Shown in pieces: positions 6,563 to 19,084 of a stretch of 64,000 bases of DNA. This DNA comes from Thermococcus piezophilus (GTDB lineage: Archaea; Methanobacteriota_B; Thermococci; Thermococcales; Thermococcaceae). Under the pieces are notes generated by a model. It did not search any database and was not told the origin of the DNA. It saw only the letters and a program-made list of their open reading frames with translations. The translations under genes and the position numbers were made by a program. Location: the NCBI RefSeq assembly GCF_001647085.1, contig NZ_CP015520.1, positions 1,508,219 to 1,572,218 of the forward strand. The letters are read 5' to 3'. Each line of letters starts with the position of its first letter. Position 1 is the stretch's first letter.

Positions 6563-7662
6563 TCATCTTCTGATGTACCAGACGCTCTTGGGATTTGGTT
6601 TTATATAGACTACTATATCCACTCTTGGGGCTGATTTTACAGTTATATGTTGTCCATTAAAGTAGAATGACCCACTAAGTTTCTGCCTCAGTACTCCATA
6701 CTTGATATTTTTGTAACTTGCACTCATAGTAACTGCTAGGTACATGTAAAAGGACTCACCCCATGCGGGAGGGTCTGGGAAGAACCTTATGTTACGCTTG
6801 AAGTCATAGAAGTGAAAGTCCACGTAATCATTGGGGTTTAATGTGTGGGTATCTCCCCTAAAGTATATCCCATCGTTGGTATCTTTTGTGTATTCTCCAT
6901 GGGCTGGTATCCTTAGAGTTTTTCCGGAGTCGACTTCAATCATGAGTGACTCAGAGTAGCTCGTTGTGGGCCCTATATGACCATCAGGCAAGAAATCGCC
7001 AAGAGTTTCATGGGTATATCCATTCCTATCAACGTGAAGGTTTAGTTCTTTGAGTGCCACATCCTTAGAGTTCATGTCCCCACGGATTTTAATCTTTGCA
7101 TAATATTCTACTCTGTAATTGTCTACAAAGTAATAGTAGTACCATCCAGTCTGTTGTATTGTGCCAGTCCTTCCATTTCTTGTGACATGAGATGTCACAT
7201 AATCTATTCTCCCAGCATATTCCCAATTAACTTTAGGTTCCACATTTAGAACATCCCCCGGCATTATGAGAGGCTCCTTGGCCAAGGTTGCAGTGATCTC
7301 ATTGAACCTCTTTTGGAACTCTTGCCTGCTCATAGGAGTGCTCTTGTCCACAATATAATATGCGGGAAGGTAATATCCATTTTTGGTGGGTCTTAGTGAT
7401 ATACCTATGAAAGTAATGTTTTCAAGATTTCTGAGATCTACTTCAAGAGTGAGCCGTCCACGATATCTGGCAAGGAAGTTCATTGCCTCCAGTGACGCAT
7501 CTTTTCCGGAAAAACTTTTGTCAAAACGATATTCTTAAAGTTCGTTGGGGGTTCTATTGATTCCATTGTCTTAGGAGATGCGGGCTCCTCTAAGGAGGCC
7601 GTAGCCATGCTGGATATTACTAACAGTCCTAACAGGATCCCCAACAATGGTTTCCACTTCAA
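6563..7662 (-). pseudogene. Secreted protein of the RWKPLL signal-peptide family (locus 2), frameshifted
   Basis: Two frames together make one secreted protein. TTG 7662 (after GGAGGTG) starts MKWKPLLGILLGLLVIS, a signal peptide, but this frame stops at 7480. The mature domain (6563 to about 7510; Tyr-, Asn- and Asp-rich) is in another frame and has no signal peptide of its own. Adding one base in the AAAA run at about 7502-7505 (plus-strand TTTT) joins them as FPEKDASLEAMNFLARY. An alternative reading is two genes overlapping as ATGA at 7480-7483, but the GGAGG before that ATG is only two bases away. The function is unknown. Confidence 0.7.
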
Positions 7663-7830
7663 GTTGACACCTCCTATAAAGGTTCTGCATTCTCACTTGG
7701 ACAACTAACTCTTATAAACTTCTCCATTTACTATAAGTAAGTTTTCTTTGTTTTTTTCTGAGTATAAATTTTTTCAGAGTTTAGTTTTACAGGGAGAACA
7801 AACCAAAAGAAGCCCAAGTAAAAGAGTGGA
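7663..7830 (-). promoter_or_regulatory. Conserved leader/promoter region, copy 2
   Basis: Minus-strand leader that is nearly collinear with copy 3 (11566-11735) through the ribosome binding site and start codon (GGAGGTGnnCAACTTG). It contains TATA-like AAATTTATACTC (around 7760-7770), the perfect inverted repeat TTACT-ATA-AGTAA (7728-7740) and a second TATA-like GTTTATAAG (around 7712-7721). Both copies 2 and 3 use a TTG start. The palindrome between the boxes is a candidate operator. Confidence 0.65.
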
Positions 7831-7885
7831 CACCTAGGTACATGTGCCCAATAGGGAAAACACATCCAATAAGCACTAAATGGAG

Positions 7886-8869
7886 TTACTCTCTTTTCCT
7901 CAAAAACTTCTCAATCTCCTTCAAAATCAGCTTTATGGCCTCGTCAAGGTTGGCCTTCCCGTTCGCTCCGGCGGCACCAGCGTGGCCGCCACCAGAGCCT
8001 TCTATAATCGGCCCGACCTTCTCCATGATTTTACCGAGGTGAAGGCCTTTCTTTACCAGGTTTTCTTTGGCCCTCGCAGAGATTCTGACGTCCTTCTTCT
8101 CACTTCCGACTATTGCTATATCGGCTCCAAGCTGGATGAATGTCTTGCAGGCGAGGGATTCATATGCTGAAACCTTTGACACCGCTATGATGTACTTTCT
8201 GAACTTCCTCAGCTCGAGTCTCTGGCAGGCCTTCAGCACGGCCATCCTCTTCGCTTGGTCAATGTTCTCGTCGCTGACGGGGGCAACCAGGTTGTATATC
8301 TCTCCCATCTGGATGGGAAACCTCTCCAGAATCTCGTTCATGGTCTTGAAGGTTTTGGCATTGGAGTAGCGGAATGTCGCGGTGTCGGTGACTATTCCCG
8401 CCAAGAGGGCCTTAGCTGAGGTCTCGTCATAAAAGCCGAGATATTTAAACAGCTCCCAGACGATTTCAGCGGTCGAAGTTCTTGAGGAATCAACAATCAT
8501 TATATCAGCCCTTATTGGATTCTCCTTCTCGGCGTGGTGGTCTATCATGATTATGAACTTGTCCTTGGGAATTTCAATAGGTTCGAGCTGCTCAATTGAG
8601 GACGTGTCAAATATCACAACGACGTCCTCGCGAACCTGTGGATCCTTCTCGATGGGAACCGGGGAAAAGGTGAGTAGCCTTTTTGTGTAGGAGGAAACAC
8701 TCTGAGCCACGCCGATTCTGACCTTCTCTATTCCAATTGATTTAAGGTAGAGGGCAAAGGCTATAGCGGAGCCAAGAGAATCCGGGTCTGCATTGTGATG
8801 ACAGAGCAGGAGGAAGGATTTGTCCCCTGCATTCTCCATGAAACGCTTAAGCTTTATCTTTCCCCTCAT
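7886..8869 (-). CDS. DHH/DHHA1-family phosphoesterase (NrnA-like)
   Basis: A 327-residue protein of the DHH superfamily. The DHH motifs are seen as HHNADPDSLGSA near residue 25, VVIFDTSS near residue 87 and MIDHHAE near residue 110. The C-terminal DHHA1 domain has the GSGGGHAGAAG signature. Such enzymes are Mn-dependent and hydrolyse phosphodiesters in oligonucleotides, pAp or cyclic dinucleotides. It lies at the end of an informational operon and overlaps the upstream DUF3194 gene by 23 bases. Nano-RNase or pAp phosphatase activity is more likely than RecJ-type exonuclease activity because of the short length. The substrate cannot be told from sequence. Confidence 0.85.
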   Translation of the reverse strand: MRGKIKLKRFMENAGDKSFLLLCHHNADPDSLGSAIAFALYLKSIGIEKVRIGVAQSVSSYTKRLLTFSPVPIEKDPQVREDVVVIFDTSSIEQLEPIEIPKDKFIIMIDHHAEKENPIRADIMIVDSSRTSTAEIVWELFKYLGFYDETSAKALLAGIVTDTATFRYSNAKTFKTMNEILERFPIQMGEIYNLVAPVSDENIDQAKRMAVLKACQRLELRKFRKYIIAVSKVSAYESLACKTFIQLGADIAIVGSEKKDVRISARAKENLVKKGLHLGKIMEKVGPIIEGSGGGHAGAAGANGKANLDEAIKLILKEIEKFLRKRE

Positions 8870-16681: not shown

Positions 16682-17692
16682 TTACCCCCTGCTCCTTTTC
16701 TCCCCCATTATCTCCATGAGCCTCCTGCACAGCTTGAGGTGGAACATAAACTCGTGGTAAATCCTGTTCTCCTCTGGGAAGAGCACCTTGAGCTCGTTCA
16801 GTCCGCGCTTGCCGCCGAACTCTCCGAAAACAATTACCCCGTTCACTTCAATGACCCCGAAAACGGCCGCCAAGTTGAATATCAGCGTCCTGAGTTGATA
16901 TGCGGTTACCTCGTGTTTTCCGAGTTTGGCAGTTGGGTAATCGAAGAGGAAGTATTCCAGCCCCTCTATCTCTGCAACGTCAGTTATTGCTATGTCTGCA
17001 GTCAGAAAGACTAAGAGAGTTGGGGTCATCTCGTCGTAGCGCTTGAGGGACTTAATGATTATCTCGTCGTTGTTGTGGGCTTCATCCTTGATGCTCTCCG
17101 CGATGATTATGCGCTCTTTTAGGCGCTCGAACTCCTTTAGGGCTATGTAGGCTGCTTTCCTCGACTTCTTCATGCGTCGGTTGCTGAACTCCTTCAGCAG
17201 GTGGGCGTTTCTGACGGCCTTTCCTATCTCGCTCAGCTGGCTGCGGTGGTACTTGTAGTTCATGGCGTTCTCTATTTCCTTCTTTACTTCCTCCGCCACG
17301 ACTATCTGATAACCGTCGAGCGGTCGGAAGCCCGAAATGAAGCGGTGGTAGAAGAGATTAGTGTCGGGAGCGAAGGTAACTCCCTTGCGAAGGTACTTGT
17401 AGAGCTCGAGGCTTTTCATGAACTCCTCTATGTTGTCGTAGCGGAGTATTCCGGCGGAGATAAATGCCTCGTAGAAGTCGACGTAGGTGGGCAGCTCATA
17501 GGACAGGTACTCCGGAACGGCTTCGCTGAACTCGTGGCGGCCGACTAGGACGTTCACTTCATAGCCAGCCTCTGATGGCCAAGCACGGAAGAGGGGCAGT
17601 TCGTAGAGGGGATAGCTAACCACTATTTCAGGAAGGACATTTATGAGTATCTGGAGCTCGGGCTTCTCGATTATCTCATATCTCACTGACAT
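16682..17692 (-). CDS. PIN-domain protein with extra N- and C-terminal regions
   Basis: A 336-residue protein with a PIN-like nuclease core between about residues 105 and 260. Acidic residues are at the expected places: Asp110 in FAPDTNLFYHRF, Glu near 139 in VVAEEVKKEIE, Asp near 209 in HNNDEIIIKSL, and Asp near 233 in VFLTADIAITD. PIN domains are Mg-dependent ribonucleases. The first 100 residues and the last 70 are not recognised. ATG 17692 follows GGTGATGAAA and overlaps the CARF-like gene by 17 bases, so the two are coupled. A role as effector of the upstream sensor-like protein is inferred. Confidence 0.75.
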   Translation of the reverse strand: MSVRYEIIEKPELQILINVLPEIVVSYPLYELPLFRAWPSEAGYEVNVLVGRHEFSEAVPEYLSYELPTYVDFYEAFISAGILRYDNIEEFMKSLELYKYLRKGVTFAPDTNLFYHRFISGFRPLDGYQIVVAEEVKKEIENAMNYKYHRSQLSEIGKAVRNAHLLKEFSNRRMKKSRKAAYIALKEFERLKERIIIAESIKDEAHNNDEIIIKSLKRYDEMTPTLLVFLTADIAITDVAEIEGLEYFLFDYPTAKLGKHEVTAYQLRTLIFNLAAVFGVIEVNGVIVFGEFGGKRGLNELKVLFPEENRIYHEFMFHLKLCRRLMEIMGEKRSRG

Positions 17693-18170
17693 TTTCATCA
17701 CCGAGGAAGTTCTTGAGCCTCTGCATGTGCCTCGGAATCATCATGTACGGCCTGTCCGGAAAGTCCATATCGAGGAGTGCCATGTAAATTATCCTGTCTA
17801 CCGGGAAGTCCCTTATCTGGACCACCGCCGCCGTTGCCAGTGCCTTCCTGCCCGAAGTTACGTCGAGTCCAATGGTATATCCCTCCTTCTCAAGCCTCTG
17901 AAAGAGCTCCTTGAACTTCTTATCCGCCTCTAAAAAGCTGTTGTCTGGGATTACTACGCTCTCTATCTCGGGCATGAAGTTGTAAGCCTCCGAGATTGCC
18001 CGTATAGCCTCAACCACCCGTGGAAGTTTGTCTCTGTAAGTCTTTTCTGTGAACACAAACACTCTCTTTGGCTTTCTTCCCTTGGAAGCTACCGCGTAGT
18101 AGGTGTTGACGAGTGCCCATTCTGAGCGGCCGAGCAGCGTTACGTATGCTATCTTCCTCGGGTTCACCAT
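17676..18170 (-). CDS. CARF-like Rossmann-fold protein
   Basis: A 164-residue alpha/beta protein. It starts with strand-helix KIAYVTLLGRSEWALVNTYY, then VFVFTEKTYRDKLPRVVEAI and a later motif LDVTSGRKALATAA (residues 102-115). This arrangement and the T-S-G-R-K turn resemble the ligand loop (TGGTK-type) of CARF domains in CRISPR ancillary proteins such as Csx1/Csm6/Csa3. No HEPN or HTH domain is attached. ATG 18170 overlaps the stop of the membrane-protein gene, and the 3' end overlaps the PIN gene. The CARF assignment rests on motif resemblance only; another Rossmann-type family is possible. Confidence 0.55.
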   Translation of the reverse strand: MVNPRKIAYVTLLGRSEWALVNTYYAVASKGRKPKRVFVFTEKTYRDKLPRVVEAIRAISEAYNFMPEIESVVIPDNSFLEADKKFKELFQRLEKEGYTIGLDVTSGRKALATAAVVQIRDFPVDRIIYMALLDMDFPDRPYMMIPRHMQRLKNFLGDENVSEI

Positions 18171-18613
18171 GTGAGATTCCCCCATGCGAATGCAATGATT
18201 CCATATAGCAATGCCAGCAGGATTGGTTTAACAGTTACTTTTCCCTCCACGGTCCTGTAGGCAAGCGTGAATGGTATTACCGGCATGAGGAAGTACTCGA
18301 GGCCATAGCTCTCGTAGATTCCCAAACCAGTAAGGGTAAAGAGAATGGGCAGGGTAGCGAGAACGCCGGCCGGTATGATCATCACCGTTATGAGAACCAT
18401 GTCTGCGGCGGTGCTCTTTTTGGCATGTGGACTGGCAACTATCCACAGCAGAAAGACGAGGAAGGAGAAGTTGAGGAGGAGCGTCCCGAAGGAGACCTCC
18501 AGAAAAGGCTCACCCTTCGCGGTTATGTAGTAGAACCACGCTGCAGCAAGAGAATAAACGAAGGATATCACGAGGGCTATCCCAAACTTCATGCGAAACG
18601 CTCTACTCCCCAC
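18164..18613 (-). CDS. Four-helix integral membrane protein in CARF-like/PIN operon
   Basis: A 149-residue protein with about four or five membrane segments (IALVISFVYSLAAAWFYYI; LLLNFSFLVFLLWIVA; MVLITVMIIPAGVLATLPIL; PILLALLYGIIAFAWG). GTG 18613 follows GAGGTGGGAGC. The stop overlaps the ATG of the CARF-like gene, so translation is coupled. No family is recognised. It could be a membrane effector or anchor for the two downstream proteins. Confidence 0.7.
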   Translation of the reverse strand: MGSRAFRMKFGIALVISFVYSLAAAWFYYITAKGEPFLEVSFGTLLLNFSFLVFLLWIVASPHAKKSTAADMVLITVMIIPAGVLATLPILFTLTGLGIYESYGLEYFLMPVIPFTLAYRTVEGKVTVKPILLALLYGIIAFAWGNLTW

Positions 18614-18622
18614 GCTCCCACC

Positions 18623-19084
18623 TCATTCTATTAGCACCATCCCATACAAAACGCTTTCGGAGAAGTCTATCCTCACCAGCTGTCCTATCTCTATCCCGAT
18701 GGCATCTATGGACGGTCTTACCTTTGTTGGCATCCTGCAGGGTTCGCCCTGTTCAAAGGGGCAGTCATCGCATAGGTTGCAACTTCCTGGGAAGAGAGCC
18801 ATCGCATACATCTTGCCCTCTTTGAATAACTCCTCTTCGCGCTTAAGAAGGTAGAGGATGGCTTTCCTTTTCTCGGCTTCGAAGTTGTTGTAGTCAATCT
18901 CAAACTTGATGAGGAGCGCCCGTTTGAATGAGCTGACCCAGTCCCTAGCTTCCCTCCAGTCCGGGACGTGGGGCGGACAGCTTGGCCTTTTACCGTACAT
19001 TGGACATGCCCTACACTTCCAGATGGGCCTCGGCGAGACGACTATATCATCCGTGCTAACTTCTTTCTCCCACAGCACCCTCAT
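18623..19084 (-). CDS. DUF2284 predicted metal-binding protein
   Basis: A 153-residue Cys-rich protein. The N-terminal CRACPMYGKRPSCPPHVPDW matches the C-x2-C-x2-YG-x4-CPP-x2-P signature of DUF2284. A second cluster CNLCDDCPFEQGEPC lies near residue 105. It probably binds iron or another metal; the role is unknown. It is the first gene of the minus-strand operon leading into the membrane, CARF-like and PIN genes, ten bases apart from the next gene. Confidence 0.8.
   Translation of the reverse strand: MRVLWEKEVSTDDIVVSPRPIWKCRACPMYGKRPSCPPHVPDWREARDWVSSFKRALLIKFEIDYNNFEAEKRKAILYLLKREEELFKEGKMYAMALFPGSCNLCDDCPFEQGEPCRMPTKVRPSIDAIGIEIGQLVRIDFSESVLYGMVLIE

What the first reader, a model, noticed from the sequence alone, without database searches (positions are those of the whole stretch)
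16682..18613. Membrane protein / CARF-like / PIN-nuclease operon with overlapping genes and no CRISPR nearby
Three minus-strand genes overlap each other at both junctions (7 and 17 bases): a four-helix membrane protein, a protein with a CARF-like ligand loop (LDVTSGRKALATAA), and a PIN-type RNase with all four acidic positions. CARF domains sense cyclic oligoadenylates made by type III CRISPR systems. Here the sensor-like, nuclease and membrane parts form their own unit. This could be a signalling defence or toxin-type module outside a CRISPR locus.
Basis: partly seen in the sequence, partly recalled or inferred. Interest (0 to 1): 0.7.

Follow-up and report, generated by a model that had tools for sequence, protein, structure and literature searches.

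The report
Split CARF sensor–PIN ribonuclease gene pair
Two overlapping archaeal genes encode a CRISPR-type signal-sensing protein and an RNA-cutting enzyme that elsewhere are joined as one antiviral protein; here they stay together as a fixed part of the chromosome, usually in cells that lack the only enzyme known to make that signal, so an undiscovered signal may control them.

Summary
The 164-aa protein is a real CARF domain: profile hit to ring nuclease Crn1 (E=2.6e-6), model matches to Csm6, Cam1 and Csa3, and PADLOC family CARF_m1 (E=3.9e-77). The PIN protein keeps its acidic tetrad. Together the genes are the halves of a fused CARF-PIN protein found beside Cas10 in related genomes.

The conserved unit is the two-gene CARF→PIN pair. 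The pair is in 79/94 Thermococcaceae and in exactly the same 59/232 genomes of the Methanoculleus class. It does not track Cas10: 51/79 and 54/59 carriers have none, and 1/79 pairs lies within 20 kb of Cas10, against 14/16 fused homologues. Both genes are under purifying selection in all eight comparisons made, one of them between two single-contig Cas10-less genomes.

Best reading: a two-subunit, nucleotide-gated RNase, kin to a type III effector but uncoupled from Cas10, ligand unknown. Complex, gating and RNase activity are inferred. A new variant of a known kind.

The parts
16682..17692 (-). PIN-domain ribonuclease gene (336 aa from ATG 17692): N-terminal linker domain, PIN domain about residues 105-250, C-terminal domain
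   Evidence: Pfam PIN_4 E=1.5e-5, above cut-off; AF2 model pLDDT 92, pTM 0.90, best PDB match SiRe_0806 with cA4; aligns to the C-terminal half of fused CARF-PIN
17676..18170 (-). CARF-domain gene (164 aa)
   Evidence: PADLOC CARF_m1--CARF E=3.9e-77; Crn1/SSO2081 by profile E=2.6e-6; AF2 model pLDDT 84, matches Csm6, Cam1, Csa3, Crn1
17676..17692 (-). 17-nt CARF/PIN overlap, implying coupled translation
   Evidence: overlap of 1-29 nt in 39/40 Thermococcaceae loci
18123..18131 (-). CARF motif I, Gly14-Arg15-Ser16 (Gly-Thr-Ser in Crn1)
   Evidence: alignments A3/A5; GRS/GRT in 39/40 Thermococcaceae loci
17844..17864 (-). CARF motif II, DVTSGRK (residues 103-109)
   Evidence: T105, G107, R108, K109 invariant in 18 sequences; equals Crn1 Gly104-Arg105-Lys106
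17363..17365 (-). PIN catalytic Asp110 (by homology)
   Evidence: 89/89 sequences
17276..17278 (-). PIN catalytic Glu139 (by homology)
   Evidence: 89/89 sequences
17066..17068 (-). PIN catalytic Asp209 (by homology)
   Evidence: 88/88 sequences complete there
16994..16996 (-). PIN catalytic Asp233 (by homology)
   Evidence: 88/88 sequences complete there
18164..18613 (-). Four-helix membrane protein, optional lineage-specific insertion in the operon
   Evidence: 24/94 genomes, directly upstream of CARF by coordinates; 4 hydrophobic segments
18623..19084 (-).
   Evidence: Pfam PF10050 E=2.1e-33; upstream of CARF in 40/40 Thermococcaceae loci

Best explanation
The CARF and PIN genes encode the two subunits of one ligand-gated ribonuclease. 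Proposed mechanism: a CARF dimer binds a small (cyclic or linear) oligonucleotide at the GRS/GRK pocket and, acting on the N-terminal domain of the PIN subunit, switches on RNA cleavage by the PIN active site, probably of host or viral RNA, giving dormancy or stress/defence control. The CARF may also slowly degrade its ligand. The system shares ancestry with the fused CARF-PIN effectors of type III CRISPR loci. The clade in this window has become a chromosomal fixture of Thermococcaceae and of Methanoculleus-class archaea that does not require Cas10, so its usual signal is probably not Cas10-made cyclic oligoadenylate. Shown: CARF and PIN identity, conserved active-site motifs, obligatory pairing, homology to a fused protein, purifying selection, independence from Cas10. 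Inferred: physical complex, ligand gating, RNase activity, target, biological role.
For: CARF identity. PIN identity and acidic tetrad. Fusion in other loci: colinear homology to fused CARF-PIN, hhalign E=8e-23 (CARF) and 2.8e-15 (PIN). Obligatory pairing: 79/94 Thermococcaceae, identical 59/232 sets in the class of G134, CARF next to every divergent PIN that could be checked, overlapping starts. No dependence on Cas10: 51/79 and 54/59 carriers lack it (Fisher p=0.25 and 1.0), and 1/79 pairs versus 14/16 fused homologues lie within 20 kb of Cas10. Purifying selection, dN/dS 0.04-0.14, including G015/G024, both single-contig and Cas10-less (0.046 CARF, 0.044 PIN).
Against: No binding, complex or RNase data, and no multimer model could be run. 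The genome of this window does carry a III-A Csm locus with Cas10, so cOA could be the ligand in this strain. Absence of Cas10 was judged with one profile (PF22335), and non-Cas10 nucleotide cyclases were not searched for. A chromosomal location does not by itself show a defence role.
Confidence: 0.62

Rival explanations
1. It is a type III CRISPR effector acting in trans: cOA from the Cas10 complex binds the CARF and activates the PIN RNase, with the gene merely outside the cas locus.
For: The fused homologues lie 4-17 kb from Cas10 in 14/16 cases, and five divergent split pairs lie 5-7 kb from Cas10. The best solved match of the PIN model is bound to cA4. This genome has Cas10.
Against: 51/79 Thermococcaceae and 54/59 carriers of the G134 class have no Cas10 palm domain, including 19 single-contig Thermococcaceae genomes. 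One genus (g28) has Cas10 in 6 of 9 genomes but no pair. This genome's Csm locus has its own Csx1.
Confidence: 0.17
2. It is a housekeeping RNA-processing enzyme, the CARF acting as an RNA-end or metabolite sensor, with no role in defence.
For: Present in nearly every member of most Thermococcaceae genera, fixed neighbours (DUF2284 in 40/40, TIP49 on the opposite strand in 24/40), purifying selection. RtcR is a precedent for a CARF domain regulating RNA repair in response to damaged tRNA (abstracts of PMC7790460 and PMC9650030).
Against: Missing from a whole genus and some close relatives, and disrupted in G116, so not essential. The nearest homologues by architecture are antiviral effectors.
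Confidence: 0.15
3. It is a toxin-antitoxin-like module: PIN is a toxic RNase and the CARF protein binds and restrains it, released by stress.
For: Overlapping small operon, PIN fold shared with VapC toxins. In G116 the PIN gene is broken by an insertion element while CARF stays intact, as expected if the PIN is the costly part.
Against: Stable presence across a family under strong purifying selection is unlike mobile TA modules. The partner is a ligand-binding CARF with a conserved pocket, not a VapB/AbrB-type DNA-binding antitoxin.
Confidence: 0.1
4. The CARF gene is a stand-alone ring nuclease of the Crn1 kind and the neighbouring PIN gene is functionally separate.
For: Crn1 is the best sequence match among solved proteins; motif II GRK and the Ser of motif I are kept.
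Against: CARF and PIN occur in exactly the same 59/232 genomes and are fused elsewhere. Crn1 NCBIfam score 14.5 against a cut-off of 125. The motif I Thr is replaced by Arg. Most carriers have no known cOA source to switch off.
Confidence: 0.05

Closest known systems
Fused CARF-PIN effectors (PADLOC CARF_m1--CARF_PIN, PDLC01973 / CARF_PIN PDLC01068) of type III loci
   Same: Both halves homologous and colinear; PIN acidic tetrad; GRK motif II
   Different: Here two genes instead of one; motif I GRS-W instead of GTS; not in type III loci; separate deep clade in the tree
SiRe_0806 of Sulfolobus islandicus (PDB 9jxw/9jxx, with cA4)
   Same: Best PDB match of the PIN model (E=1.7e-7) and among the best for the CARF model
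   Different: Single 429-aa chain; only weak sequence similarity (CARF profile E=0.013)
CARF_m1--CARF (PADLOC PDLC01971), minor CARF family
   Same: The window protein is a member, E=3.9e-77
   Different: The model covers only the CARF; our PIN protein matched no PADLOC model other than the two fused CARF-PIN ones
Crn1 ring nuclease SSO2081
   Same: CARF fold, motif II GRK, Ser of motif I (PMC10018336)
   Different: Thr10 replaced by Arg and Glu17 by Asn by the printed alignment; fails the family cut-off; paired with a nuclease gene
RtcR (CARF-AAA-HTH activator of RNA repair)
   Same: CARF domain used outside CRISPR
   Different: Transcription activator, divergent CARF, no PIN

Membership tests
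CARF superfamily | Rossmann-like fold matching solved CARF domains | tested here: met
   Foldseek matches to Csm6, Cam1, Csa3, Crn1, Card1, E down to 3.3e-7
CARF superfamily | S/T at end of strand 1 and [DN]x[ST]xxx[RK] after strand 4 (PMC4012209) | tested here: met
   Ser16; D103-V-T-S-G-R-K109
CARF superfamily | Binds an oligonucleotide ligand as a dimer | not testable with these tools
   Needs protein
PIN ribonuclease | PIN fold with conserved acidic tetrad | tested here: met
   Pfam PIN_4 above cut-off; PIN structures among fold matches; tetrad conserved
PIN ribonuclease | Metal-dependent RNase activity | not testable with these tools
   Needs assay
Fused CARF-PIN effector | CARF and PIN in one polypeptide | tested here: not met
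   Two overlapping genes
Fused CARF-PIN effector | Homology of both halves | tested here: met
   hhalign E=8e-23 and 2.8e-15
Type III CRISPR ancillary effector | Encoded in or near a type III locus | tested here: not met
   1/79 within 20 kb of Cas10; no array in the window
Type III CRISPR ancillary effector | Occurs together with Cas10 | tested here: not met
   51/79 and 54/59 carriers lack PF22335, although this genome has it
Crn1 ring nuclease | Score above the cas_Crn1 equivalog cut-off | tested here: not met
   14.5 bits against 125
Crn1 ring nuclease | Motif I Gly-Thr-Ser and motif II Gly-Arg-Lys | tested here: inconclusive
   Gly-Arg-Ser and Gly-Arg-Lys; Thr10Ala had no noticeable effect on Sso2081 cleavage (PMC10018336), but Arg there has not been tested
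VapBC toxin-antitoxin | DNA-binding antitoxin (AbrB, RHH, Phd) beside the PIN toxin | tested here: not met
   The partner is a CARF

The most novel reading that the evidence does not exclude
A stable archaeal CARF-gated RNase system, in two subunits and with its own pocket signature (GRS-W), that works with no Cas10 in the cell and therefore answers to a signal other than Cas10-made cyclic oligoadenylate, for example an RNA end or the product of an unrecognised nucleotide cyclase.
Probability: 0.45. Interest if true: 0.82.

Novelty: new variant of a known kind. Interest (0 to 1): 0.62.

Why it matters
CARF domains are almost always discussed as receivers of Cas10-made cyclic oligoadenylate. 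Here a CARF with a conserved pocket is tied to a nuclease gene and kept in dozens of genomes in which no Cas10 was found. That makes a direct test possible: find the ligand of this CARF. The answer would show either a second nucleotide signal in archaea or that CARF-nuclease pairs serve RNA surveillance apart from CRISPR, and it bears on whether type III effectors came from such systems or gave rise to them.

Tried and rejected
Unrelated Rossmann family: rejected. Three-gene unit with membrane protein: rejected (24/94). Virus-encoded relatives: none in viral contigs by the pattern scan. Pfam and NCBIfam gave no CARF call above threshold for the window protein itself; PADLOC did. TAL-effector hits of the CARF profile are artefacts of repeats summing weak matches. 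Papers: the 2020 CARF classification is not held; no held paper on SiRe_0806 or on a CARF-PIN protein was found; the searches for Thermococcales CARF proteins and for CARF domains outside CRISPR returned no title or abstract that describes this pair, but I looked inside only some of the papers listed (PMC4390880, PMC4012209, PMC12669027, PMC12409355, PMC10018336). Whether the two-gene arrangement was noted before therefore remains open. DUF2284 was not found near the Halobacteriota pairs, so it is not a core partner.

Full report
WHAT IS THERE. On the minus strand the window holds four co-directional genes: DUF2284 (18623-19084), a four-helix membrane protein (18164-18613), a CARF protein (17676-18170) and a PIN protein (16682-17692). 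The AAA ATPase TIP49 follows on the opposite strand. A scan for regularly spaced repeats found no CRISPR array in the 64 kb.

CARF IDENTITY. Pfam is silent on the window protein and NCBIfam gives only a sub-threshold Crn1 hit. A 15-sequence profile finds the Crn1 ring nuclease SSO2081 in the PDB at E=2.6e-6. An AF2 model (pLDDT 84, pTM 0.80) matches Csm6, Cam1, Csa3, Crn1 and Card1, E down to 3.3e-7. PADLOC places it in CARF_m1--CARF at E=3.9e-77. Motif II is Gly107-Arg108-Lys109, equal to SSO2081 Gly104-Arg105-Lys106, where single mutations of Arg105 or Lys106 greatly reduced cA4 cleavage (PMC10018336); motif I is Gly14-Arg15-Ser16 where SSO2081 has Gly-Thr-Ser. By the printed alignment, SSO2081 Glu17, an adenine contact in that paper, corresponds to Asn22, which is invariant in our family.

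PIN IDENTITY. Pfam PIN_4 scores above its cut-off. The AF2 model (pLDDT 92, pTM 0.90) has its five best PDB matches in SiRe_0806, listed in the PDB as a PIN domain-containing protein and solved with cA4; our CARF model also matches it. From those two matches I infer that SiRe_0806 is itself a CARF-PIN fusion; no paper on it was found. The acidic residues D110 and E139 are conserved in 89/89 sequences checked, D209 and D233 in 88/88, the remaining sequence being interrupted there.

ONE PROTEIN SPLIT IN TWO. Related genomes carry a fused protein of about 480-530 aa with CARF at the N-terminus and PIN at the C-terminus. Profile comparison aligns our CARF with its columns 3-156 (E=8e-23) and our PIN protein with columns 239-464 (E=2.8e-15). 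PADLOC scores our PIN protein against CARF_m1--CARF_PIN at 1.6e-16. In a tree of joined CARF+PIN sequences the fused proteins group together (support 79) within a deep clade that also holds split pairs of Halobacteriota; the other deep clade, with Thermococcaceae and Methanoculleus-class pairs, is all split (quick method, some long branches, root not inferred).

THE PAIR IS OBLIGATORY. In Thermococcaceae 79/94 genomes have both genes; 40/40 loci fetched have them adjacent, 39 overlapping by 1-29 nt. In the class of the Methanoculleus genome G134 the PIN profile and the CARF profile each hit 59/232 genomes, and the two lists are the same. Of 37 Halobacteriota loci fetched, 36 have a CARF gene upstream of the PIN gene on the same strand; the exception, L244, is cut off by its contig end. 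In one of the 36 (L260) a VapBC-like pair sits between them. The membrane gene is present in 24/94 Thermococcaceae only. DUF2284 precedes CARF in 40/40 Thermococcaceae loci, at -4 to +16 nt in most of those without the membrane gene, but was not found near the Halobacteriota pairs.

NOT TIED TO CAS10. The Cas10 palm domain (PF22335) is in 36/94 Thermococcaceae. Of the 79 pair carriers 51 have none; among single-contig genomes 19/27 carriers have none. In the G134 class Cas10 is in 5/59 carriers and 16/173 non-carriers (Fisher p=1.0). Many of these are draft genomes, where a missing gene can be a gap; hence the separate count for single-contig genomes. The pair lies within 20 kb of Cas10 in 1/79 Thermococcaceae genomes, the fused homologue in 14/16. 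Five divergent split pairs of Halobacteriota do lie 5-7 kb from Cas10, so the wider family spans both lifestyles.

SELECTION. dN/dS was computed for eight pairs of related Thermococcaceae loci with a Nei-Gojobori script: 0.037-0.144 for CARF and 0.044-0.090 for PIN. Of the eight, L123/L124 (G015/G024) is the comparison in which both genomes are single-contig and without a Cas10 hit (0.046 CARF, 0.044 PIN); L114/L116 (G130/G127) and L132/L133 (G041/G013) also join Cas10-less genomes, but G130 and G041 are multi-contig. The other comparisons include at least one genome with Cas10. Synonymous divergence exceeds 1 in several comparisons, where the ratio is rough.

THIS GENOME. G000 has a III-A locus (Cas6, Cas10, Csm2-4) with a Csx1 CARF-HEPN gene and a repeat array at the contig ends, about 400 kb from the pair if the contig is circular. 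In this strain cOA is therefore probably available and could reach the CARF.

HOW IT LIKELY WORKS. Inference from the parts: CARF dimer as sensor, PIN subunit as effector, contact through the PIN protein's N-terminal domain that corresponds in position to the linker of the fused form. Ligand, target RNA and biological role are unknown. Rivals are listed with what would refute them.

NOVELTY. The CARF family is catalogued (CARF_m1) and fused CARF-PIN proteins are known; PMC4012209 already noted two CARF families associated with PIN. What I add is the strict two-gene pairing, its spread in two archaeal groups, its independence from Cas10 and the GRS-W pocket signature. The 2020 CARF classification could not be read, and only some of the papers found were looked into, so prior mention of the pairing cannot be excluded.

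Noticed in passing
window 18623-19084: DUF2284 predicted metal-binding gene is the first gene of the operon in 40/40 Thermococcaceae loci; role with CARF-PIN unknown.
   Followed up: partly
L113 about 7580-8520 (G116:C4): The PIN gene is interrupted by an insertion carrying transposase-like ORFs while the upstream CARF gene is intact; natural PIN disruption in a Cas10-bearing genome.
   Followed up: partly
L260 7406-8021 (G395:C1): An AbrB-like small protein and a small PIN-like protein lie between CARF and PIN, an apparent VapBC-like insertion into the operon (named by eye, not by a family search).
   Followed up: no
L224 1-8268 and L225 14393-16755 (G000 contig ends): Own genome's III-A Csm locus with Csx1 (CARF9-HEPN) and a CRISPR repeat array with 35 copies of a 20-mer.
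   Followed up: partly
L245-L258: Divergent split CARF/PIN pairs of Halobacteriota; five of these genomes have Cas10 5-7 kb away, the others have no Cas10 hit.
   Followed up: partly
   Followed up: no
G014:C1:677265-698700: Only Thermococcaceae genome with the pair within 20 kb of Cas10 (15 kb), and it also carries the fused CARF-PIN there.
   Followed up: no
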